This document shows, one piece after another, positions 2,773 through 37,931 of a stretch of 37,931 nt of DNA. Both the position numbers and the translations under genes were made by a program. The notes below the pieces were generated by a model. That model had not been told where the DNA came from. It did no database searches and saw nothing but the letters and a program-made list of their open reading frames with translations. Source of the stretch: a virus; IMG/VR virus record IMGVR_UViG_3300043598_000038, positions 1 to 37,931 of that record. One strand, written 5' to 3'. The first letter of the stretch is position 1; each line of letters begins with the position of its first letter.

Positions 2773-2938
2773 TTTTCGCCCCCTCCCTTTCCTCTTTTTC
2801 CCGGTCCAATGATTTGATAAGTTCATCAATTCTCCTGGAGGTCTCCTCGCCCTGCAGTTGAAGCTTGAACATCTTCAATGCGTGATCGATTTCCTCCCGG
2901 ACAATCAATCGAATATCCGCTTTAGTTATTTGCTCCAT
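2765..2938 (-). CDS. small coiled-coil protein, 57 aa
   Basis: A short ORF that fills the gap after the AlkB gene. It starts at ATG 2938 inside the last 17 bp of AlkB and ends at TAA 2765, overlapping the next start by 8 bp. The product is almost wholly charged and helical (IRLIVREEID, SRRIDELIKSLDREKEEREG), so it is probably a coiled coil. Overlap at both ends is the pattern of genuine coupled phage genes. Function unknown. Confidence 0.6.
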   Translation of the reverse strand: MEQITKADIRLIVREEIDHALKMFKLQLQGEETSRRIDELIKSLDREKEEREGAKNA

Positions 2939-4226
2939 TTGTACGCTCCGATTTGAAAACTCTGCGGCCCGTTAGACTGATCCGGCCACCACATTTAAGC
3001 AGCGTCGACGTTTCAGGAATGAGGCGCTTGACCTCGTGGAAAGCGAGGCGTGAAGGGCCGCCCATTACAACCACGTCGCCGCTCTGCAGCTCGATATCGA
3101 CACCTTTAGATTTCCGGTTTTCATCGCCGATATTGAAGATGCAGCTATCGCCCAGGCTGACCGTTACGATCGGCGATTCGCGCTCATCCTCTGTAACGTC
3201 CTGGTGTCGGCCGAGCTTCCCCACGCGAGGCGGATAGAAGTTGAGGAGGACGGTGTCCAGCTTCAAGGTTCCGAAGCCGGCCGCGCTGACCGCCCGTTGC
3301 ATTAGGAGCTGCAGATCGAGAGGGATCATTGGAAAAAGCTTTCCATTGGCGTGGCGTTTCATGTAGTAGTACCGCCCGAGATCTCCGAACCAACCTACTT
3401 GCCCCCAGCTGGTGACTCGAAGGCTCAAGTCATAGCCCGTCTTTGTTCTCGGCTGCATCAGCGGGTGTGAATTGACGAGCTGCCGGCACAGGTCGACCAG
3501 GCGCAGCTGGAGCTCCTCGTTAGCGAAGTTTTTGAGGTGAAATGTGCCTGCAGGTAAATTATTGAAGATCGCTGGTGAAACCAGCAGCTCAGAACCGATC
3601 GAACGCTGATAATTGCGCATGTTCCTCGCGGCTTTTTGGTATGGCTCGATCTGCTTTGCAGGGGGAATTAGAAAGACTGGATTTTCGTCGCTATCCTCAT
3701 ACACCATCAGGCGGATGTCGAAGGAGCTGAGCCGGCGATGGCGATTATCGAAGCCCCGCTGTCTCGATCGGATGCGTTCGCACTCCCTCCGGCCCTGGGT
3801 GGTTAGACCGTATCGCGTGGGATAGCAGCGGCCATATTTCGCCAAAAGTTCGCGGGCTTCCTCAAGGGTTACCTGATGGCCTCGCTTGCGCATCCGTCTC
3901 TGAATTGCCACGGCGTCCTTGTTGTCTGGATTGCTTCGGAAAACCGCCGCTGTGATTCGCGCTTTCTCGCGAACCACCGGGTTATCTTTCCAGTATGCTG
4001 TATTTACATCAGCATTATTCTTTCGCCATTTTTGGAGGTACAGCCGCTTATAATCGCGCCGATAACCGCGCTCATGGGCGTTATGGCACTCTTTACACTT
4101 GGGGCGCATGTAATAGACCTTTTCAGCTCGGAGGCGCGTTACTATCATCTCTGCGCGCGGTTTTGTCTTGTCGCAATGATTGCAATGGCCTTCAACGGGT
4201 AGATCTTCAAGTTTGGCTGCTTTCAT
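2922..4226 (-). CDS. AlkB-family 2-oxoglutarate/Fe(II) dioxygenase fused to an N-terminal zinc ribbon
   Basis: 434 aa. Residues about 215-425 match AlkB closely: LNFYPPRVGKLGRHQD with the iron-binding HxD (H341, D343), SPIVTVSLGDSCIFNIG, the GDVVVMGGPSRLAFH block with the distal His (H397), and two Arg six residues apart (R415, R421) like the 2-oxoglutarate Arg pair of E. coli AlkB. The family repairs 1-methyladenine and 3-methylcytosine by oxidative demethylation. Residues 15-48 form a four-Cys zinc ribbon (C15, C18, C44, C47) of the kind found at the start of HNH-like phage proteins, followed by a basic helical linker to about 210. E. coli AlkB is about 216 aa, so half of this protein is additional. 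It probably protects or repairs phage DNA. Confidence 0.9.
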   Translation of the reverse strand: MKAAKLEDLPVEGHCNHCDKTKPRAEMIVTRLRAEKVYYMRPKCKECHNAHERGYRRDYKRLYLQKWRKNNADVNTAYWKDNPVVREKARITAAVFRSNPDNKDAVAIQRRMRKRGHQVTLEEARELLAKYGRCYPTRYGLTTQGRRECERIRSRQRGFDNRHRRLSSFDIRLMVYEDSDENPVFLIPPAKQIEPYQKAARNMRNYQRSIGSELLVSPAIFNNLPAGTFHLKNFANEELQLRLVDLCRQLVNSHPLMQPRTKTGYDLSLRVTSWGQVGWFGDLGRYYYMKRHANGKLFPMIPLDLQLLMQRAVSAAGFGTLKLDTVLLNFYPPRVGKLGRHQDVTEDERESPIVTVSLGDSCIFNIGDENRKSKGVDIELQSGDVVVMGGPSRLAFHEVKRLIPETSTLLKCGGRISLTGRRVFKSERTNGANN

Positions 4227-15687: not shown

Positions 15688-16845
15688 ATGGGATTTACAG
15701 ACAGAGCAAAAATCATCGCGCTCGCGATCGTTCACATATTCGAGACCTCCAAGGCGTTCGGCGATTACGCCGCCTGTGTGGTTTTGAGGGACGGCGCGGG
15801 TGTCTCCTACGGTATCAACCAGTTTACCCACAGATCCGGATCGCTCCTGGCGGTCGTAATGCGATACCTGCAGAAACGCGGGACGATCGGCCGGGCGCCG
15901 CTCGAGGAAGCATTGCCGACGCTGAAACTGAAGACGACCGCCGCCATACTGGACCTCTCGGGCGATGCTCGATTTAAGAAAGCTTTGAAGGCCGCCGCGG
16001 CAACCCGCGAAATGCGCGAGGCCCAGCACGAAATTTCAGAAGAGAAATACCTGCGGCCGGCATTGGATGCAGCGGAGGGATCGGGCTTCGTTTTGCCGCT
16101 CTCGTTAGCGGTGATCTTCGACTCGATCAATCACGGCTCTTTCGCCCGAATCAGGGACCGCGTGAAGATCTCGAGAAAAAGTTACAGCTCGGATATCGAG
16201 TTTGAAAAGGCGTGGATCTACTCGTATGTAAAGAACCGCGATGCCTGGCTTGAGGGTCACTCAAACCCGCTACTCCGCACAACGGATTACCGGACAGATT
16301 TCTTTCTCGCGCAGATCGCGCGGGGTAATTGGACGCTGGAGCTGCCGATGAACGTTCACGGATTTAAGCTCAGCGCAGATATTTTCAAAGATTCGACGGT
16401 TGAGCACGACGAACAGCCTACAGTTGTTCCCGACTATCGTGAAACCCCTGAAACCCCGCCTGAACCCCCTGAAGAACCCGCAGTCGAAGCTCAACCGTCG
16501 AATACTGCGGACCAGGCGGCCGGGGAAGAGGGCGTTCTCGATAAGGCCGGGGAAATGTACGGCGCTGCGTCGGAGAAATTTGACAAGGTTAGTGATGTGG
16601 TTTCGGGGATCGGCCAGAGAAAGGATGCCGCGAAGTCTATGTGGACCACGATCGGAGGTACGATCTGGCAGTCGGTCTGGGCGGTGATCGCGTTTTTTAT
16701 CGGTCTGCCGCGTGAGATTTGGATCGCCGTCGCAGTCTTTGCCGGCCTGCTAATGGTCGTCTATCTCTACCGCCAGAACAAGCTCGGCATTATACGTGAG
16801 AGGGCCCACTGGGCCATGCAGGGCGTGGCCGATCGCCTCAAATAA
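15688..16845 (+). CDS. GH46 chitosanase-like endolysin with C-terminal membrane segments
   Basis: 385 aa. The N-terminal region (1-230) starts IVHIFETSKAFGDYAA and continues LRDGAGVSYGINQFTHRSGSL. E19 and D35 in these contexts match the catalytic pair of the GH46/lysozyme-superfamily chitosanase fold (E-T/S, then DGxGxSxG). The likely substrate in a phage is peptidoglycan. A Pro/Glu-rich linker (about 245-270) leads to a helical stretch and one or two membrane segments (WAVIAFFIGLP, IWIAVAVFAGLLMVVYLY, about 330-365). It opens the lysis module and is followed 16 bp later by another membrane protein. Confidence 0.75.
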   Translation: MGFTDRAKIIALAIVHIFETSKAFGDYAACVVLRDGAGVSYGINQFTHRSGSLLAVVMRYLQKRGTIGRAPLEEALPTLKLKTTAAILDLSGDARFKKALKAAAATREMREAQHEISEEKYLRPALDAAEGSGFVLPLSLAVIFDSINHGSFARIRDRVKISRKSYSSDIEFEKAWIYSYVKNRDAWLEGHSNPLLRTTDYRTDFFLAQIARGNWTLELPMNVHGFKLSADIFKDSTVEHDEQPTVVPDYRETPETPPEPPEEPAVEAQPSNTADQAAGEEGVLDKAGEMYGAASEKFDKVSDVVSGIGQRKDAAKSMWTTIGGTIWQSVWAVIAFFIGLPREIWIAVAVFAGLLMVVYLYRQNKLGIIRERAHWAMQGVADRLK

Positions 16846-29158: not shown

Positions 29159-29467
29159 ATGCCCCTAGAAAAATACCGCGAAAACCCCGAGGAAGAGACT
29201 TGCGCCGGCTGCAAGCTTTTTCCTACGAAGCCGGGCAACATCCCGGACGAAATAGCGGGTCCGACGTATCTCGCGCTGCAACTGTCGGAAATCGAGCGCA
29301 GCGGGGGGAAGTTTAATTACCCGGATGCACTCTCTCCCTTCGAATGGTCGGCGATTGCCGGCCTTACTCGAGGGCGCGAAAGGGCTGAAAATCTCCGGCA
29401 AGATCGTGAGCGCACAGATCGCCGGCGTGAAGAGCGCAAAAAGAAACTCCAAGGCCAAAATGCCTGA
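29159..29467 (+). CDS. second tail assembly chaperone candidate
   Basis: 102 aa from ATG 29159; TTG 29135 is an alternative. The product has LEKYRENPEEETCAGCKLFP with a CxxC, and LSPFEWSAIAGLTRGRERAENL, then a charged tail. The phrase L-x-P-F-E-W-x-A-I-x-G-L is typical of the T-type chaperone that loads the tape measure. Neither start has a good ribosome-binding site, and the frame is open upstream to 29033, so it may be made as an extension of the previous protein. It overlaps the tape measure start by 8 bp. Confidence 0.6.
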   Translation: MPLEKYRENPEEETCAGCKLFPTKPGNIPDEIAGPTYLALQLSEIERSGGKFNYPDALSPFEWSAIAGLTRGRERAENLRQDRERTDRRREERKKKLQGQNA

Positions 29468-32400
29468 TTTCGTAATTTCAACATCGATCGACGCTAGTGG
29501 CGTACGGAAAGGCGCGGATGAAACAAGACGCGCCTTTTCGTCGCTTGCGTCCGATAGCCGCCGTCAGGTGGAACAGCTGCAGCGCTCGATGAAAGGCCTG
29601 GATGACGGCAGCATCCAGAAGTTCGCCCGGAACATTCAGAAATCGATGGCCGAGGCCGGACGATCGGGCACGGATTACATGAATATCCTGCGACGCTTTC
29701 GTCCGGAGCTGGACGCGCTCGCAGATAATCTCAAGAAAGGATCTCTTTCGCAGGAAGATTATAACCGCCGGTTAAAGGCATTGCCGCCGATCATGCAGAC
29801 GGCGATCGCCGAATCCCGCAAGCTCGGCCGCGAGATCCATGGGATCGGCGAGGAAACGAACAAGGCCAGCCAGCAGTTTGAAAAGCTCAAGAATGCCGGC
29901 ACGTCGATACAGAATTTCGGCAGCCAGGTTTCAGGCGTGGGCCGGCAGCTCACTATTGGCCTAACGGCCCCGATCGTCGGCATTGGTGTAGCCGCGATTA
30001 AAAGCTTTTCGGATGTAGAGTCGGCTGTCGCAGAGATCTCCACGATCAAGCCGACAATAAATAGCTCCGAGGTTTTTACCGCGCTGAACGAAATGTCTAC
30101 CCGTGTACCTAAACTTGCGGGTGAGTTGGGCGGCGGTCTCTATAATATTTTCTCTTCAATAAACGTTAATCAGGCTGAGGGACTTAGACTCCTAGAGATA
30201 TTCGGCAAGGGTGCTACAGCCGCCAAAACCGAAACAGAAGCATTCGGTACTGCTGTCCTGGGCGTTCTGAATGCCTATAAATTAGGGGTCGATCAGGCCG
30301 AACATGTCTCGGACGTTTTCTTTAATACCGTAAATCTGGGTGTGGTCAACGGCCGTGAGCTTTCGAACGAACTCGGCCTTGTGACGCAGGCCGCGAAAAA
30401 TGCGGGTGTTTCCTTTGACGAGCTGGGCGCTTTGATCGTGGGAGTTACCAAGGAAGGCGGCACGGCAAGCCAGAATATAAACAACCTCTATAACCTTCTG
30501 AGTAAGATAACCACGAAGGAATCGATGGACGCGCTCAAAGACGGGCTCAATATCGATGTACAAATAGGGGGGAAATTCAGGCCGATACTGGACGTGCTGG
30601 GGGACCTAAAAGTAAAGCTCGATGCCCTTCCCCCCGCAGCGCGCGCCCTCCAGCTTCAAAAGATATTCCCTGACGGGCAAGCCAGGACCGGCGCTCAAAC
30701 GCTGCTCTCACAGCTCGACGCGGTAAAGGAAGCGCTGGAAGTAAATAAAACGACGGCCGGCGCGGCAGAGGCAGCTTATCAAAAGATCGCCGCCACGACA
30801 GCCGTTCAATTCAGCCTGCTCAAAAACAGCGCAATCGCGATCATGGCCGAACTCGGGAGCGCAATCCTTCCCATCCTCCAGCCGGTGATCATGTGGATCG
30901 CGAAAACGCTGGTGCCGGCCGTGCGCTCGGCGGTCGAATCCTTTAAGACCTGGTCCCCGACAATGAAAACCGTCGCCGTCGCCGTAGCGGGGATTCTGGC
31001 CGCCATCGGCCCGTTCCTGATCGCGCTCGGCGCGGTGATCAGCTTCGTAGGGGCGACGGTCGCCGGCATTATGTCGTTCGTAAGCGGCTGGGCGGCACTG
31101 ACCGCCGCGGCAGCGGCGGCGGGCGGGGTGCTCGCACTCGTGGGCGGTTTTATTACCGTTACCCTGATCCCGGCGCTAAAGATCATTATCCCGGTATTTC
31201 TCGCGATCGCGGCCGTGATGGCCGTGGTAATCGCGGCCGGGGCGGCGCTATATGCCGCATGGCGCATTAACTTCGGGGGGATCAGGGACTATACCATGGC
31301 CGCCTATAACGCCATCAAGAGCATTGTGATCACGGTGATGAACACCGTGTTGAGCGTTGTGCGGTCGGCGGGCGGCGCGATGGTTGCCTGGTGGAAGGAA
31401 AACTACCCGGCGATCCGCCAGGTGGTGGAAACCGTTTCGATCGCAATTAAGACGACGATCGGGAATTTCCTGAAGGCGGTGGAGCAATTCTGGAATGCAC
31501 ACGGCAGCCGAATAATGGCCTATGTGACCACGTATTTGGGTTACGTCAAATCGATATTCACGCAGGTGGTAAACCAACTCGGGACGGTGCTGCGGTTCGG
31601 GCTGCAGATAATGACCGGGAATTGGGAGGGGGCATGGCAAAGCTTCCTGAAAATCCTCCAGAACGGCTCGAGGCTGGCGGCTACGGCACTGCGGGCGGGC
31701 ATGGACCTGATCATAAGGATCATCGCCGCGCTGGTGCCGATAATGACCCAATACGGAAGGCAATTTACCGAAACGTTATTGCTCTGGATAGGCAAAGCGA
31801 TGGTCGGCGCTGCCTACATAATTGCCACGCTGCCGGTGCAGCTCGCGCGGCTGGTGCCGAAATTCATTCTCGCCGGCAGATCGATCGCCTCGGCCATCTG
31901 GCAGGGGATAAAAGAAGGGCTGGCCGGCGTCGATAAAATGCCGTCGATCCTCGGCGGCCTGGCGGGCTCTAAAAACCTTACGCAGCCGAGCGCAGCGCTG
32001 GGAGCTGTAGGCGGCGGGCCCGCGATCGATACGGCATCACTCGCAGGGGCGAAGATGCCTAGTCTCTCGGGCGGGTCCGGGGGTAAGTCGGCCGCAGCGA
32101 AAAAGCCTTTTGAACTCGGCGCACGCGCGAAGGCCATTATGGAAATGGCTGACAGGCTCGGAGTCAGCGCGCTCGATCTCGCCACGATCATTTCGTATGA
32201 AACCGGTGGCACATTCTCGACCAGTAAATGGGGCGGCAAGGGTGGCGATTATCTCGGGTTGTTCCAATTCGGTGCCGAGGAGCGGAAAAAATATGGTGTT
32301 AAAGCCGGGCAGCCTTTCGATGACCAACTGCGGGCCGGTGAGCGCTTTCTCCTAGACCGTTTTGCGGGCGTCGGACGCTCGACCCAGGGGGCGACAATAC

Positions 32401-35129
32401 TCGACCTTTACAAGACGTTCAACGGCGGTAACCCCGGTAAGTCTGGTAATGCTTCAGACGGCAATGGAACGATAAACGAGCATGTAGCTAAAATGATTCG
32501 CGACAATCGACCGCAGGCGCTGAAGACCTTATGGGGAGGGGAAAAATCGAATCTTACGAGCAATGAGGTTGAACTGCCTAAGACCTTCGAGCAACTGGCG
32601 GATGAGAACCTTTATAACGCCGCGAAGCAAAGGGTCCAGGACCTGATCACGCTCTCGCGAGAGCTCGGCATCGCGCTAACCGTGCCGGCCGAGGTGACGA
32701 CCAGCAATCAGGACCTGATCTTAAAACAACGGATCGAGTTTAAAAATCTGACGGATCTTCGAGATGCTCGCGAAAAGGTAACGGACCAATATATAAAGCT
32801 CAAGCCGATACTCAACCAGCTCGGGAAATCGGAGGGCGATTATTCCACGAAAACGTTGGCAGATGCAGACAGATCGCTAAAGCAACTGGCCTCAATGGAG
32901 GACCTGAAACTATTTGCCGATTCGGAACTGGACCGGACGACAAAGGAGCTGCGAGAGCTAAAAGCGGGACTCGGCGAAACGCTGACCCCGCTGCAAACAT
33001 TCGACCGGACGCTGGAAATGCTGGCGCAGGCGGCGGGCGTCTCGGTGGAGGCGATCAAACAGGCGATACCGAAGTTTGCGGAGATCCGCAAGAACATCGA
33101 GGAGACGGGCAAACTGAACTTTGCGGAGACGATTAAGAAGCAGGCGAAGGAAGCGAGCGCGGCGATCGGCGAGCTCGCCCGAAATTACGAGCGAGAACTG
33201 GCAGGGATGAAGGACAAGACGCCGGGGATAACGGAGTTTTTCAAATCTCTCGAAGGTATGGAAGGGTTGAAACTCAGCTCCCTAAAAGAGATGAATCAAT
33301 TCGTTACGTCGACAAACGAAATCGATGTGGCAAAGCTCACCACGTTCGTGCGCGGGTGGCTTACGATACTCGCCGGCTTCGGTCAGTTCGACGCGTCGCA
33401 GATCGATGTCGTAATTGAAAAAATCACGGCGGCCGCTAATGGTTTAAACCAGCTTAAAGGTGCGAATCTGGCCAAAGCGGCCGGCGAATACCGGGGCGGC
33501 CTGGCGGAGGAACTTGCCGCGCTGCAGCGGGCCGGGCAGGAACTGACCAGGTACGAGCTGGCCCAACGGGAGATCCTGAAAAACTATAAAGATCTCTCAT
33601 CCGCGGAAAAAGAGCAGATACTCAACCTGGCGGCGCAGGTCGACGCGCAGGCCGAATTGAACGAATCCTACAACAGATTTTACGGATTTGTGAGCGACAG
33701 CCTGCACACGCTGGCCGATGAAGGTTTCGGCGGTTTGTTCAAATCGATAGCGCGAAAGTTCAAGGACATGTTGATCGATATGGCCGCGCAATGGATCACG
33801 TCCAAGATCTTCGGCCTGCTTAACGGGGGTACCGGCCAGAGCGGGGGCACGGGCGGCGGGTTTGGCGGAATTCTGAGCGCGATAGGAGGGTTATTCGGTA
33901 TCGGGGGCAACCGCTCATCAGGCGGCACTGCGTCGAGCGGGGGAAGAGGCAACATGACTACCCCGAGCTTTAACCCGAACGCCTACGCCGGGGGATCTAT
34001 CGGCACAGGAGCTAACGATCCGTTTAGCGCAGTATTCAACGGGGCGTTTGATAATAACGCCTGGGCAAACGGGCAGGCGATCGGCACCTCGAGCTCCGCG
34101 GCGACAGGCGGCTTCCTTGCCTCGCTCAAAGGCCTGTTTTCCCCGGTCAAGAATGTGCTGAACGGCGGAAAGCCGAGCGCCATGGCGGGAACGCTTTCGG
34201 GCATAGGCATGCTCGCGAGCCTGGCGGGGAGCCTGATCGGCGGAAAGGTCGGGGGGGTTCTTTCGATGGCCGGCACCGGCATGGGGATCGGGGCAATGTT
34301 CGGCCCCTGGGGCGCGGTGGCGGGAGCGGCGATCGGGGCGATCGTCGGCCTGTTTCAGGGAGATCCGAAAAAGAAGATCGACAAGAAAGAAAACCTGCCG
34401 AAACTGCAGCAGGGTTTCACGGACGCGCTCGGCCAGCTACGCTCGCTGCTTAGCGACCGAAACGCTCTTTCGAACGATCCGGACGGCGCGCTGCAAAAAG
34501 CCCAAGAGTTAAGGATGCAGATCGCCTCAGGCTTCGGCATCCAGTTTCAATCGAAAAAATACAAGGCCGTGGCCCAGACGCAGATAACCGCGAAACTGGC
34601 AGAGGCAGACCAGATAATCAAACAACTAAAAGAGCTAGCCAGCGGATATGGTTTTGCGAAAACTATTGACGACCGGCTGCAGACCTCGTTCGCTTCGGGT
34701 GTGTCTATTAGCCCCGACTTCATGAAGCAATATTCACGTTTCAAACGCCGAAACGGGATGCTCGCCGGCGCGTGGAACGGCCGCGATACGCTGCCCTCGA
34801 TGCTTGCTCCGGGGGAGATGGTATTGAACCCGATGCAGATCGGGAGAGTGAGGGCAAACGCGGGGTTCGATGCCTTCAAACACGCGGGAATTCCGCATTA
34901 TGCGGCAGGGGTTTCTCTGGCGCCGCCGCCGGGCGCGCCGATGCGAAACGACGGCGCGCCGGCAAACCGGCAAACCGGCCCGATCAGCGTGCAAATCGTT
35001 CTGAACAATTCCGGGATGGTGGAATCGGACATTCAAAGCATTTTGGTCGACGGGATCAAGCAGCCGGAGGTTCAGGTAGAGATCGTCAAGGCCTATAACA
35101 AGGGCAAAGCGAGGACACGAGGTAAATAG
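29460..35129 (+). CDS. tape measure protein with internal lysozyme-like domain
   Basis: 1889 aa from ATG 29460. The N-terminal region contains coiled coil (VEQLQRSMKGLDDG). Residues about 180-350 match the TP901-type tape measure core (FSDVESAVAEISTI, ALNEMSTRVPKL, GVSFDELGALIVGVTKEGG). Hydrophobic segments lie at about 490-610. Residues about 885-965 form a lysozyme/transglycosylase-like domain: ALDLATIISYETGG with E914, then YLGLFQFG. Long helices, a Gly/Ser-rich stretch (about 1460-1540) and a hydrophobic Gly-rich segment follow. It fixes tail length; at about 1.5 Angstrom per residue the tail would be at most near 280 nm. The lysozyme part should help DNA cross the cell wall. Confidence 0.93.
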   Translation: MPDFVISTSIDASGVRKGADETRRAFSSLASDSRRQVEQLQRSMKGLDDGSIQKFARNIQKSMAEAGRSGTDYMNILRRFRPELDALADNLKKGSLSQEDYNRRLKALPPIMQTAIAESRKLGREIHGIGEETNKASQQFEKLKNAGTSIQNFGSQVSGVGRQLTIGLTAPIVGIGVAAIKSFSDVESAVAEISTIKPTINSSEVFTALNEMSTRVPKLAGELGGGLYNIFSSINVNQAEGLRLLEIFGKGATAAKTETEAFGTAVLGVLNAYKLGVDQAEHVSDVFFNTVNLGVVNGRELSNELGLVTQAAKNAGVSFDELGALIVGVTKEGGTASQNINNLYNLLSKITTKESMDALKDGLNIDVQIGGKFRPILDVLGDLKVKLDALPPAARALQLQKIFPDGQARTGAQTLLSQLDAVKEALEVNKTTAGAAEAAYQKIAATTAVQFSLLKNSAIAIMAELGSAILPILQPVIMWIAKTLVPAVRSAVESFKTWSPTMKTVAVAVAGILAAIGPFLIALGAVISFVGATVAGIMSFVSGWAALTAAAAAAGGVLALVGGFITVTLIPALKIIIPVFLAIAAVMAVVIAAGAALYAAWRINFGGIRDYTMAAYNAIKSIVITVMNTVLSVVRSAGGAMVAWWKENYPAIRQVVETVSIAIKTTIGNFLKAVEQFWNAHGSRIMAYVTTYLGYVKSIFTQVVNQLGTVLRFGLQIMTGNWEGAWQSFLKILQNGSRLAATALRAGMDLIIRIIAALVPIMTQYGRQFTETLLLWIGKAMVGAAYIIATLPVQLARLVPKFILAGRSIASAIWQGIKEGLAGVDKMPSILGGLAGSKNLTQPSAALGAVGGGPAIDTASLAGAKMPSLSGGSGGKSAAAKKPFELGARAKAIMEMADRLGVSALDLATIISYETGGTFSTSKWGGKGGDYLGLFQFGAEERKKYGVKAGQPFDDQLRAGERFLLDRFAGVGRSTQGATILDLYKTFNGGNPGKSGNASDGNGTINEHVAKMIRDNRPQALKTLWGGEKSNLTSNEVELPKTFEQLADENLYNAAKQRVQDLITLSRELGIALTVPAEVTTSNQDLILKQRIEFKNLTDLRDAREKVTDQYIKLKPILNQLGKSEGDYSTKTLADADRSLKQLASMEDLKLFADSELDRTTKELRELKAGLGETLTPLQTFDRTLEMLAQAAGVSVEAIKQAIPKFAEIRKNIEETGKLNFAETIKKQAKEASAAIGELARNYERELAGMKDKTPGITEFFKSLEGMEGLKLSSLKEMNQFVTSTNEIDVAKLTTFVRGWLTILAGFGQFDASQIDVVIEKITAAANGLNQLKGANLAKAAGEYRGGLAEELAALQRAGQELTRYELAQREILKNYKDLSSAEKEQILNLAAQVDAQAELNESYNRFYGFVSDSLHTLADEGFGGLFKSIARKFKDMLIDMAAQWITSKIFGLLNGGTGQSGGTGGGFGGILSAIGGLFGIGGNRSSGGTASSGGRGNMTTPSFNPNAYAGGSIGTGANDPFSAVFNGAFDNNAWANGQAIGTSSSAATGGFLASLKGLFSPVKNVLNGGKPSAMAGTLSGIGMLASLAGSLIGGKVGGVLSMAGTGMGIGAMFGPWGAVAGAAIGAIVGLFQGDPKKKIDKKENLPKLQQGFTDALGQLRSLLSDRNALSNDPDGALQKAQELRMQIASGFGIQFQSKKYKAVAQTQITAKLAEADQIIKQLKELASGYGFAKTIDDRLQTSFASGVSISPDFMKQYSRFKRRNGMLAGAWNGRDTLPSMLAPGEMVLNPMQIGRVRANAGFDAFKHAGIPHYAAGVSLAPPPGAPMRNDGAPANRQTGPISVQIVLNNSGMVESDIQSILVDGIKQPEVQVEIVKAYNKGKARTRGK

Positions 35130-35133
35130 ATTT

Positions 35134-36234
35134 ATGTCGAGAGAATGGAGCACTGACCTACAGACGATTCACGAGGCCTACAAGCGGCGCGATACGCTGG
35201 CCATCTACATGGCCAACGGCGACGAACTGCTACTTTCACGCGGCGCGGTGACGAGCGCAAAAGGCACTTATCTTAACTGGATCAGATCGGTGAGCGAAAT
35301 GCGCTCCTCGATAGATCAGGCGATCGACCGGGTAACGATCACCTGCCAGAATGTGACCTCCGATCTCGGGTTTAACCTGGCAAGCAGCTTGCGGCAGCTG
35401 GACTATGCAACGGCCGACTATGGAAAGCAATATCAATCGCTCCGGAATTTAGCGCTGGTCGAGGAGATCCCGAAGATGTTCAGGGGGGTTTTGGCCAACG
35501 GCGAGGCGGACGAAGAGAATATGATTTTCGAGCTGATCGTGGATTATGAATCCTTAGGCGCGATCATCGCCTCGAGAGGGCTGGGGCCGCTGTGCTCGTG
35601 GATCTATCAGAACGGCATAGAATGCACCTCGCCGAGCGGCGAGACGAGCTGCCCGAAAACGCGGGCCGGGTGCTTTAAGCGGGAGGTTGAACACGAGCAC
35701 GGCGGCTTTCCGGACTGCGAGCAGCCGGTAACGACACCGCCCGGAGGAGGAGGCGACGACGGCGGCGGGATCGGCAACGGCACTTGCTTCACGCTCGATA
35801 CGCCGATCTGGACGCCGGGCGGCGAGATCCCCATCGGAGAGCTGCGAGCAGGAGAGCGGGTCGTTTCGTTTCACGAGAAGAGCGGCGATATCGATTACAA
35901 AGATGAGATCGTGGAGGTACACGAGCACGAAGCCACGGGGTACTACACCCTGGAATTCGATCACGGGATAGTGAATGTTACTCCGGAGCATCCTTTTATG
36001 GTGGAGTTCGGCAAATTTACGACGGCCGATTGGCTGAGGCTTGGCGATACCGTCAAATCGCATACGCATCGGTGGCATGATTCGACGCTTCGAAAAATAA
36101 GGTGGAATTCCGACCGAAAAATAAAGGTCAGGAACCTCCACGTAAAACTAAATCACACGTATTTTGCCAACCGGTGCGCGGTGCATAATCTAAAGCCGCT
36201 TGGCGGCGGCGATATCCCACAAAATTACCCGTAA
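35134..36234 (+). CDS. gpL-like tail-tip protein with C-terminal intein-like Hint domain
   Basis: 366 aa. Residues 1-200 resemble the baseplate/tail-tip proteins related to lambda gpL: beta-rich, then a cysteine cluster C154, C164, C173 (CPKT), C180 and the motif GGFP (190-193), probably a metal or Fe-S site. After a Gly-rich linker, residues 218-352 are a Hint module: CFTLDTPIWTPGG (block A, C218), VTPEHPF with T283 and H286 (block B), VRNLHVKLNHTYFANRCAVHN (blocks F and G, split here as VRNLHVKL and NHTYFA) ending in H351-N352. The next residue is Leu, not Cys/Ser/Thr, and only 14 residues follow. No homing endonuclease is present. This matches bacterial intein-like (BIL) domains, which self-cleave and do not depend on standard splicing. 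Confidence 0.85.
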   Translation: MSREWSTDLQTIHEAYKRRDTLAIYMANGDELLLSRGAVTSAKGTYLNWIRSVSEMRSSIDQAIDRVTITCQNVTSDLGFNLASSLRQLDYATADYGKQYQSLRNLALVEEIPKMFRGVLANGEADEENMIFELIVDYESLGAIIASRGLGPLCSWIYQNGIECTSPSGETSCPKTRAGCFKREVEHEHGGFPDCEQPVTTPPGGGGDDGGGIGNGTCFTLDTPIWTPGGEIPIGELRAGERVVSFHEKSGDIDYKDEIVEVHEHEATGYYTLEFDHGIVNVTPEHPFMVEFGKFTTADWLRLGDTVKSHTHRWHDSTLRKIRWNSDRKIKVRNLHVKLNHTYFANRCAVHNLKPLGGGDIPQNYP

Positions 36235-36248
36235 AGGAGTAGAGTAAA

Positions 36249-37931
36249 ATGACAAGTGTAAATCACCTCAAAAATCAATCAGCCCAGCAGAAATATTTAA
36301 CCGTCGCCTTCGGGCTGCAGGCGGTAGTAGGGCACCTCTTGCGCTCGAAGGCGACGGGCGGCGATCCGTTTCAGATGATCGCCCTGAACGCGCTCGGTGA
36401 GGGTGAATGGGATGGCTGCCTGGGTGCCTACTATCGAGGGATCGAGATCCCGGCCGCCGATTACAATTTTCACCCCGGAGCGCTGGCCACGGCGATGGAA
36501 ACCGGCACTCAGATCGTAGATTCGTTTTTCGATCTGGACCTGCCTCATAGCAGGACGGCGATGATTGGCTATAAATGCCCCGCGGGCATCGGTTCGACGG
36601 ACACGAGAGAGAATCCACCGCTCGATTTCAAGGGAATCTTTCGAACTAAAAAATGCCTCGATTTTGACGACGCCGGCGAGGCGACCGGGTTTAGTTATTC
36701 GCCAAACCCAGCGCGCGTTCTGGTGCAGACGCTGCTGCAATACGGCCGGCTGCCAAACCTGCCGGCAGCTTACGACTCGCACGTCGACTACTGGCTGGAC
36801 CGGATCGACTGGCCGGTATGGGATGCCTGGAGAAATTATCTCGAGGGAGCGGAGGAAGTCGACTATAGGACGTGGGAGGGCCTGGACGGTTTCGGGCTAA
36901 CGGCACAATATTATAACGGCACCAGTTTTGACACCTTCGTAGCGAAATTCGTTCTGCCGGTGATCAACATTCAATCTGCCAGCGCCCCGCCCGCGGGGGG
37001 CGTTACGCCCAGCAGCTTCAGCGCGATATTCGAAGGCTTTGTGAAGACCACCGGAGCGGGAGAGTACACGTTTACCTGCGTACATACCGAGGGCGTCAGA
37101 GTCACCCTCAACGGCTCGCTGAGAATAGATGAGTGGAGCTCGACGGGCACGCATTCATCGAGCGCAATCGAACTGGATGGCGATACGTTTTATCCCTTAA
37201 AGGTCGAGTGGAAAAACACTACCACTACGGCGTCTTTAAGCCTCTCATGGAGCGGCGGAGGGAACCCCGCGGAACTGATCCCGACAAAGAATCTATACCC
37301 GAAGGTAGAAGACCGGCCGCGCTACGAAGCACACGTCTATTTTGATACGCCGACGAACTATGCCGATGCGATGCGGCAGGTGCTGCTGGTCTCGAATTCG
37401 ATAATGCAGGACGTGGACGGGAAGCTCCGGTTTTACTGTCTCGAGCAACTTGAATCGACCTTTGAACTGGACGATTCGAACATCGACAAATTCAAATTCA
37501 GACGGCGCGATATCCTGATCGCCGATCCAATTACGGCTTATGAATCGAGCTGCCGGGATCTCGACTCTCAATTTCTCGAGGAGATGGAAACGCCGGTTAG
37601 GGTGGAGCTAACGAACCTGAGCCGAAAGAACGCCGAGAACATAAAAACGGTAACCCTTTATAACATGACCAGGTGGCAGGCGCGAAAGGTTCTGCAGATG
37701 CGGGCGAAGCTTGAAGTCGAGTATGACCTCGTCCTGGAGATCGAGGGGAAAACGGCGAAAACGTACCCGGTAGTTGCCGGCGACGTGATCACTGTATCGC
37801 ACAGAAAGATCAACGGCGACCCGGCCGATTATTTGGTAAGAGAAGTGACGGAATCGGGGGTAAGCGAGGCGACGGGAGAGCAAGGAAAGGACCCGGAAAG
37901 CAGGACCTTCGTTTTGCAGAATTGGAACTAG
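36249..37931 (+). CDS. tail hub/tip protein with inserted PA14 domain
   Basis: 560 aa, complete to its TAG at the window end. Residues 1-210 and 351-560 look like the two parts of a siphophage tail hub (NALGEGEWDGCLGAYYRG, NPARVLVQTLLQYGRLP; later QVLLVSNSIMQDVDGKLRF and KVLQMRAKLEVEYDL). Residues about 213-350 are an inserted PA14 domain: GLTAQYYNGTSFDTFV, FSAIFEGFVKTTGAGEYTF, EGVRVTLNGSLRIDEW and YPLKVEWKN. PA14 domains bind sugars, so this may be a receptor- or surface-binding module. AAAGGAG lies about 9 bases before ATG 36249. More tail genes probably lie beyond the window. Confidence 0.85.
   Translation: MTSVNHLKNQSAQQKYLTVAFGLQAVVGHLLRSKATGGDPFQMIALNALGEGEWDGCLGAYYRGIEIPAADYNFHPGALATAMETGTQIVDSFFDLDLPHSRTAMIGYKCPAGIGSTDTRENPPLDFKGIFRTKKCLDFDDAGEATGFSYSPNPARVLVQTLLQYGRLPNLPAAYDSHVDYWLDRIDWPVWDAWRNYLEGAEEVDYRTWEGLDGFGLTAQYYNGTSFDTFVAKFVLPVINIQSASAPPAGGVTPSSFSAIFEGFVKTTGAGEYTFTCVHTEGVRVTLNGSLRIDEWSSTGTHSSSAIELDGDTFYPLKVEWKNTTTTASLSLSWSGGGNPAELIPTKNLYPKVEDRPRYEAHVYFDTPTNYADAMRQVLLVSNSIMQDVDGKLRFYCLEQLESTFELDDSNIDKFKFRRRDILIADPITAYESSCRDLDSQFLEEMETPVRVELTNLSRKNAENIKTVTLYNMTRWQARKVLQMRAKLEVEYDLVLEIEGKTAKTYPVVAGDVITVSHRKINGDPADYLVREVTESGVSEATGEQGKDPESRTFVLQNWN

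What the first reader, a model, noticed from the sequence alone, without database searches (positions are those of the whole stretch)
35782..36234. Intein-like (BIL-type) Hint domain at the end of a phage tail-tip protein
Residues 218-352 carry all core Hint blocks (C218, T283-x-x-H286, H351-N352) but have Leu after the terminal Asn and no endonuclease. It follows a Gly-rich linker after a gpL-like cysteine cluster. This suggests the tail-tip protein is cut during or after assembly, releasing the Hint part or a 14-residue tail, or activating the Cys for ligation to another virion protein. A self-processing step in tail-tip maturation would be unusual. The domain itself is seen; the processing is inferred.
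Basis: partly seen in the sequence, partly recalled or inferred. Interest (0 to 1): 0.78.

Follow-up and report, generated by a model that had tools for sequence, protein, structure and literature searches.

The report
Self-cutting-type domain capping phage tail-tips
A phage protein at the very tip of the tail ends in a domain of the family that lets proteins cut themselves, and the same end-cap turns up on several unrelated tail-tip and tail-fibre proteins of phages of soil bacteria (Acidobacteriota), which suggests an undescribed self-processing step in the part of the phage that touches its host.

Summary
The 366-aa protein at 35134-36234 is a lambda gpL-type tail-tip protein (residues 1-~197, invariant four-cysteine cluster), then a glycine-rich linker, a complete Hint domain (C218 to H351-N352) and a 14-aa tail. 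Pfam, NCBIfam, PDB sequence search and an AlphaFold model (best match: bacterial intein-like domain 2lwy, TM 0.88) agree. It is not a one-off. Thirteen phages/prophages carry gpL+Hint, hosts Acidobacteriota where known; across ten of them the Hint residues that never vary are C1, block-B His, the final His-Asn, one Val, one Tyr, and a Lys two residues after the Asn. The same C-terminal module (Gly linker, Hint, 4-14 aa tail) also ends unrelated tail fibres and J-like tail proteins in Acidobacteriota prophages, one Gemmatimonadota prophage and two virus contigs. Hint-less relatives simply stop where the linker begins. Best reading: a C-terminal autoprocessing cap that is cut off, exposing a Gly-rich mature end on the outer face of the distal tail. 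Cleavage itself is inferred, not shown. Covalent joining of the tail protein to an amine (own tail, partner or host) is a rival. I found no description of such tail proteins; the kind (Hint/BIL) is known, its use here is new.

The parts
29325..35129 (+). tail tape-measure protein, 1934 aa, directly upstream
   Evidence: PHROG tape-measure families E=3.1e-56; PhageMin_Tail E=1e-23
35134..36234 (+). gpL-type tail-tip protein with C-terminal Hint domain, 366 aa
35134..35724 (+). residues 1-197: gpL-like core, about the length of a whole Hint-less gpL
   Evidence: weak profile match to lambda gpL 8iyk_L over the iron-sulfur domain, E=0.57; tblastn to 'tail tip assembly protein L', E=0.03; relative L151 matches Phage_tail_L PF05100, E=3.5e-4, below cut-off
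35593..35673 (+). residues 154-180: four-cysteine cluster (C154, C164, C173, C180), the [4Fe-4S]-ligand pattern of gpL
   Evidence: invariant in 10 homologues; Hint-less gpL proteins also keep a Cys-rich end
35725..35784 (+). residues 198-217: glycine-rich linker
   Evidence: sequence; Gly enrichment before C1 in the tail-protein Hints
35785..36189 (+). residues 218-352: Hint (bacterial intein-like) domain
35785..35787 (+). C218, first Hint residue (nucleophile for the N-S acyl shift)
   Evidence: invariant in 10 gpL homologues and in 15 modules
35980..35991 (+). T283-P-E-H286, block B TxxH
   Evidence: H286 invariant in 10 gpL homologues, 14 of 15 modules
36184..36189 (+). H351-N352, C-terminal block (Asn cyclisation)
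   Evidence: N in 15 of 15, H in 13 of 15 modules
36190..36231 (+). residues 353-366: short C-terminal tail, Lys354 at +2
   Evidence: Lys at +2 in all 10 gpL homologues of A3; 17 of 22 short-tail Hints against 0 of 24 others
36249..37931 (+). next gene, 560 aa: J-like hub protein with a PA14 domain (residues 216-345)
   Evidence: PA14 E=4e-17; same gene order in relatives

Best explanation
The Hint domain is a self-processing C-terminal cap on the tail-tip protein. Shown by sequence: a complete gpL-type protein (about 197 aa), a flexible Gly-rich linker, a catalytically intact Hint domain, and 14 more residues. Inferred: after or during folding and assembly, the peptide bond before C218 is turned into a thioester by the Hint domain and broken by water or another nucleophile, and Asn352 cyclises and cuts on the C side, so that the mature tail-tip protein ends in the Gly-rich linker at about residue 217 and the Hint part leaves. 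As the gpL C-terminal domain lies on the outer surface of the lambda tail tip, the cap would sit outside, on the adhesion device. The same cap was recruited by several unrelated distal-tail proteins, so its role (aiding assembly, keeping the adhesion device inactive until maturation, or producing a defined C-terminus) probably concerns the distal tail as such rather than gpL alone. Which of these roles it has is a guess.
For: Hint identity and fold. Across 10 gpL+Hint proteins as little as 22% identical to the window's, the only invariant Hint residues are C218, H286, V332, Y343, H351, N352, K354. Hint part under purifying selection, dN/dS 0.13-0.21 between the closest relatives, like the gpL part, 0.16. 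gpL relatives without Hint end after the cysteine cluster: L081-L089, L156/L157, L252 216 aa, so the Hint is an appendix. The same module ends unrelated tail fibres and J-like proteins. J-like proteins of one related group exist with (L082, L084) and without Hint (L081, L083, L085, L086, L089). BIL domains lacking a +1 nucleophile mainly give cleaved products (PMC7664689). [quoted passage not shown]
Against: No cleavage has been observed. The conserved Lys at +2 and the kept short tail are not explained by simple removal. Some members have lost single catalytic residues: penultimate His to Ser in L185 and L155, block-B His in L193, block B apparently degenerate in L082/L084. No virion of these phages has been studied.
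Confidence: 0.5

Rival explanations
1. Splicing-type processing: Asn352 cleavage frees the short tail, whose alpha-amine (or the side chain of +1 Ser/Thr, or Lys354) attacks the C218 thioester, so the Hint is excised and the tail peptide is joined to the gpL linker. The Hint would then be a removable insert and the tail a functional end.
For: The tail is conserved in kind (HNxK, then 2-12 residues) across unrelated proteins. Some relatives have Ser or Thr at +1. A BIL domain has been reported to ligate without nucleophilic side chains (Aranko 2013, seen by title in the reference list).
Against: The +1 residue varies freely (L, V, S, T, A, R, M). The tails have little in common beyond the Lys. 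Hint-less gpL proteins have no such tail.
Confidence: 0.17
2. Ligation: the C218 thioester is handed to an amine or other nucleophile on a neighbouring virion protein or on the host surface, so the tail protein becomes covalently attached, as the Hedgehog Hint attaches its partner to cholesterol.
For: The N-terminal nucleophile machinery is invariant. The module sits on distal-tail, host-facing proteins only in the phages found. In lambda, gpL C-terminus plus gpJ N-terminus correspond to one continuous domain in T5 pb3 (PMC10721106), and gpL and the J-like gene are adjacent here.
Against: No substrate-recognition domain after the Hint. The C-terminal Asn is invariant although pure N-side transfer does not need it. 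The module also ends J-like and fibre proteins, so joining gpL to J cannot be the general purpose.
Confidence: 0.13
3. Retained structural or adhesive domain without processing: the Hint fold is used as a display domain on the tail tip.
For: AlphaFold shows an ordinary folded domain on a flexible linker. A few members have lost single catalytic residues.
Against: The residues that stay invariant are the catalytic ones, while the surface changes freely.
Confidence: 0.12
4. Degenerate former intein stranded near the end of gpL.
For: Hint sequence blocks and size of a mini-intein; Ser/Thr at +1 in some relatives.
Against: Always at the C-terminus, behind a Gly-rich linker, on several unrelated proteins; no C-extein counterpart in Hint-less gpL; purifying selection; no endonuclease.
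Confidence: 0.05
5. Pretoxin (PT-HINT) arrangement releasing a toxin from a carrier.
For: The best Pfam family is PT-HINT.
Against: Only 14 residues follow the Hint, 4-14 in relatives; the toxin-type Hints found are followed by 70-500 residues.
Confidence: 0.02

Closest known systems
[quoted passage not shown] C. thermocellum BIL, PDB 2lwy
   Same: Fold (TM 0.88), size, Cys1, TxxH, C-terminal His-Asn, no endonuclease, no +1 nucleophile in the window protein
   Different: Known A-type BILs are described in variable bacterial proteins (PMC7765530); here it is a C-terminal cap on phage distal-tail proteins, and +1 Ser/Thr occurs in relatives
Lambda gpL (tail tip protein L, Phage_tail_L, 8iyk_L)
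   Same: Four-Cys iron-sulfur-type cluster, size of the core, gene order tape measure - L - hub
   Different: Lambda gpL ends after the iron-binding domain; no linker, Hint or tail. The window shows no gpM or gpK between tape measure and gpL
PT-HINT of polymorphic and MafB-type toxins
   Same: Hint sequence family; BIL placed between an N-terminal part and what follows (PMC4287609)
   Different: No toxin domain downstream
Inteins of phage terminases and helicases
   Same: Hint chemistry blocks
   Different: Those interrupt conserved enzymes and are spliced out; here the domain is terminal
C-terminal autoproteolytic chaperone domains of phage tail spikes (Peptidase_S74 type), from general knowledge
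   Same: In principle: a C-terminal domain of a tail protein that cuts itself off
   Different: Unrelated fold and chemistry; a functional analogy only, not tested

Membership tests
Hint superfamily | Hint horseshoe fold | tested here: met
   AlphaFold model, Foldseek to 2lwy E=1.7e-9, TM 0.88; 62 PDB hits at E<=0.001, those listed all BIL or intein
Hint superfamily | Cys/Ser at position 1, block B His, family sequence profile | tested here: met
   PF07591 above cut-off, TIGR01445 above cut-off, C218 and H286 invariant
A-type BIL | C-terminal His-Asn without a nucleophile at +1 | tested here: met
   H351-N352-L353 in the window protein. In relatives +1 may be Ser or Thr, so it holds for this protein, not for the whole family
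A-type BIL | autocatalytic cleavage | not testable with these tools
   needs protein
A-type BIL | no homing endonuclease | tested here: met
   135 aa from C1 to Asn
Intein | nucleophile (Cys/Ser/Thr) at +1 | tested here: not met
   Leu353
Intein | inserted inside a conserved host protein with an extein on both sides | tested here: not met
   Hint-less gpL relatives end where the linker starts
PT-HINT pretoxin | toxin domain after the Hint | tested here: not met
   14 aa only
gpL tail-tip protein | four conserved Cys in the C-terminal domain | tested here: met
   invariant C154, C164, C173, C180; pattern as in PMC10721106
gpL tail-tip protein | place between tape measure and central hub gene | tested here: met
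gpL tail-tip protein | family sequence profile (PF05100) | tested here: inconclusive
   window protein: no PF05100 hit; relative L151: 20.4 bits against a cut-off of 25; 8iyk_L E=0.57
gpL tail-tip protein | bound iron-sulfur cluster | not testable with these tools
   needs protein

The most novel reading that the evidence does not exclude
Phages of Acidobacteriota and neighbours use a portable 'Gly linker - Hint - short tail with Lys at +2' cap on the proteins of their adhesion device, and its thioester chemistry makes a covalent bond: either to Lys354 and the tail (splicing through a lysine side chain), or to a virion or host-surface amine, which would make the tail tip a covalent adhesin.
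Probability: 0.12. Interest if true: 0.92.

Novelty: new variant of a known kind. Interest (0 to 1): 0.7.

Why it matters
Hint domains are known in inteins, Hedgehog proteins, BIL proteins and toxin precursors; in the 50,697 phage records every annotated Hint match that I saw was a terminase, helicase or similar enzyme, or a hypothetical. A recurrent Hint cap on tail tips, hubs and fibres points to an undescribed autoprocessing (or covalent coupling) step in the host-contact machinery of phages of a widespread, hardly cultivated soil phylum. It gives a directly testable question (is the tail protein cut at 217/218?), a candidate signature (HNxK plus stop), and possibly a new source of compact C-terminal self-cleaving domains.

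Tried and rejected
(1) Close relatives in virus contigs with the window protein alone: none; they were reached through the capsid protein. (2) Genome scan with the 5-row alignment: none; reached through capsid-bearing Acidobacteriota genomes. (3) Ruminococcus phage and human-gut phage hits (H1, H2): toxin/Rhs-type Hints, followed by further domains, rejected as relatives. (4) T4-like helicase and terminase hits: true inteins, a different use. (5) The tail genes of the Bacillota-type relatives with 55% capsid identity look unrelated to this module: not informative. (6) AlphaFold of the divergent homologue L099 failed (mean pLDDT 28): no evidence either way. (7) A single origin of the tail-protein Hints could neither be shown nor excluded (tree). 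(8) Defence-system reading: no PADLOC match. (9) Some guesses at contig numbers fetched wrong or no contigs; those loci (L170, L171, L173-L175) were not used, and L172 held no tail genes. (10) Pseudomonadota, 398 genomes: the 14 module-profile hits were toxin-type, enzyme inteins or small non-tail proteins.

Full report
What is there. The window is a 37,931-base virus record of a tailed phage: transposase-like and AAA genes on the left, terminase, portal, Mu-F-like and capsid genes, a 1934-aa tape-measure gene, the 366-aa protein in question, and a 560-aa hub-like protein with a PA14 domain. Its capsid protein is up to 72% identical to those of Acidobacteriota (Blastocatellia/Pyrinomonadaceae) genomes, so the host is probably of that group (inference).

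PT-HINT (5.6e-11) and intein_Nterm pass their curated cut-offs; the only significant PDB sequence match is the C. thermocellum bacterial intein-like domain over residues 218-352. The AlphaFold model (five sequences; mean pLDDT only 53, but mostly about 60-85 in the Hint) gives the same protein as best Foldseek match, TM 0.88.

The N-terminal part is a gpL-type tail-tip protein. The evidence is moderate but consistent: four invariant cysteines, position between tape measure and hub, a weak profile match to lambda gpL over the iron-sulfur domain (E=0.57), a tblastn match to 'tail tip assembly protein L' (E=0.03), and a sub-threshold Phage_tail_L match of relative L151. Typical Hint-less relatives are about 216-223 aa and stop after the cysteine cluster, about where the window's Hint begins (residue 218).

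Relatives. Four virus contigs whose capsid gene resembles the window's and which reach this gene all have Hint on gpL: three at 63-64% identity and one at 28%. In Acidobacteriota genomes eight more prophage proteins have the same architecture: G056, G069, G052, G425, G371, G505, G508, G506. Of 162 genomes of that class, eight carry it. In the ten-row alignment the invariant Hint positions are C218, H286, V332, Y343, H351, N352 and K354: the catalytic set plus a lysine at +2. Nei-Gojobori dN/dS of the Hint part is 0.13-0.21 between close relatives, like that of the gpL part; comparisons with the window itself are near saturation in dS and are not used.

The module is portable. Profile searches brought up the same C-terminal arrangement on other proteins: a tail-fibre protein (L152, PHROG tail fibre E=1.6e-11), a fibre-like protein in a locus with what I take to be a tail-sheath gene (L153/L177), a protein after the hub-like gene of another siphophage-type locus (L155/L178; PHROG tail fibre 1.6e-5), a virion-region protein in G505 (L193/L245), a 1510-aa fibre-like protein (L242), 1515- and 1395-aa J-like proteins directly downstream of tape-measure and small tail genes in Acidobacteriota G139 (L243) and Gemmatimonadota G987 (L244). 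In two virus contigs found through similarity to the window's own hub protein, gpL has no Hint but the long J-like protein next to it ends in 'Gly-rich - Hint-like - THN...' (L082, L084), while the J-like proteins of L081, L083, L085, L086 and L089 lack it. In L082/L084 the domain is degenerate at block B and scores weakly (E=0.009 and 6e-5). So the cap comes and goes at the ends of distal-tail proteins.

Features of the cap. In 15 modules C1 and the terminal Asn are invariant, block-B His 14 of 15, penultimate His 13 of 15. The tail after Asn is 4-14 residues; in the other Hints found (toxins, enzymes) it is mostly 70-500. Lys at +2 occurs in 17 of 22 short-tail Hints and 0 of 24 others (Fisher 1.5e-8). 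Mean Gly in the 20 residues before C1 is 0.38 against 0.13. Caveats: close relatives are counted separately, 15 of the modules built the profile, one gpL member (L186, +2 Ser) fell in the wrong bin, and two short-tail entries (L158 partial, L240) are doubtful; the p-values are therefore descriptive. Members that were not used to build the profile repeat the pattern (L210 HNAK, L219 HNLK) or show Lys at +3 (L082, L084) or +1 (L241).

How it probably works. Established chemistry of the family: Cys1 shifts the upstream peptide bond to a thioester, the terminal Asn cyclises and cuts downstream; domains without a +1 nucleophile mostly cleave (PMC7664689; PMC7765530). [quoted passage not shown] Most likely it is removed to give a mature, Gly-ended tail-tip protein. 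Splicing of the short tail onto gpL, or ligation to an amine, is compatible with the data and would explain the Lys better; a purely structural domain is disfavoured because it is the catalytic residues that stay constant.

Novelty. The Hint/BIL kind is known. I found no paper in the held library describing Hint domains on phage tail proteins; the library misses most subscription papers, including the original BIL papers. Public structure sets hold viral proteins labelled 'Hint', some with fibronectin-type annotation, and one 363-aa entry (A0A516L6G1) matching the window protein over essentially its whole length, so the architecture has been sequenced elsewhere without, as far as I could see, being discussed.

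Noticed in passing
window 36249-37931, and the hub-like genes of L093, L145, L146, L147, L150, L151, L185, L186: The J-like hub proteins next to gpL+Hint carry a PA14-like stretch (PF07691 tested in the window protein only; the others by visible sequence similarity); J-like proteins of the group with Hint-less gpL (L081-L089) do not obviously have it.
   Followed up: partly
window 15688-16845: Gene with a glycosyl hydrolase family 46 (chitosanase) domain, E=5e-18, plus a C-terminal hydrophobic stretch; possibly the lysis enzyme.
   Followed up: no
window 2922-4226 (-): 2OG-Fe(II) oxygenase (AlkB-like), E=7e-40, fused to an N-terminal Cys-rich part.
   Followed up: no
window 29325-35129: The tape-measure protein has an internal peptidase/lysozyme-like stretch around residues 935-1059 (phrog_21656).
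   Followed up: no
window 35129-35134: Only 4 bases between tape measure and gpL; no gpM, gpK or gpI counterpart is seen between tape measure, gpL and hub.
   Followed up: no
L188 1486-2133 (G504): A gpL N-domain relative that lacks both the cysteine cluster and the Hint and ends in a Gly/Pro-rich stretch.
   Followed up: no
L185 1495-2580 (-), L155 139-1965 (+): Module members with Ser-Asn in place of His-Asn at the C-terminal block.
   Followed up: partly
L227, L230, L206: Small Pseudomonadota/Acidobacteriota proteins with a Hint ending in 'AHS' (no Asn) after a Cys-rich N-terminus; a different type of Hint protein.
   Followed up: no
L094 7482-8780: Ruminococcus phage (Ca. Heliusvirales) protein with a pretoxin-type Hint.
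   Followed up: no
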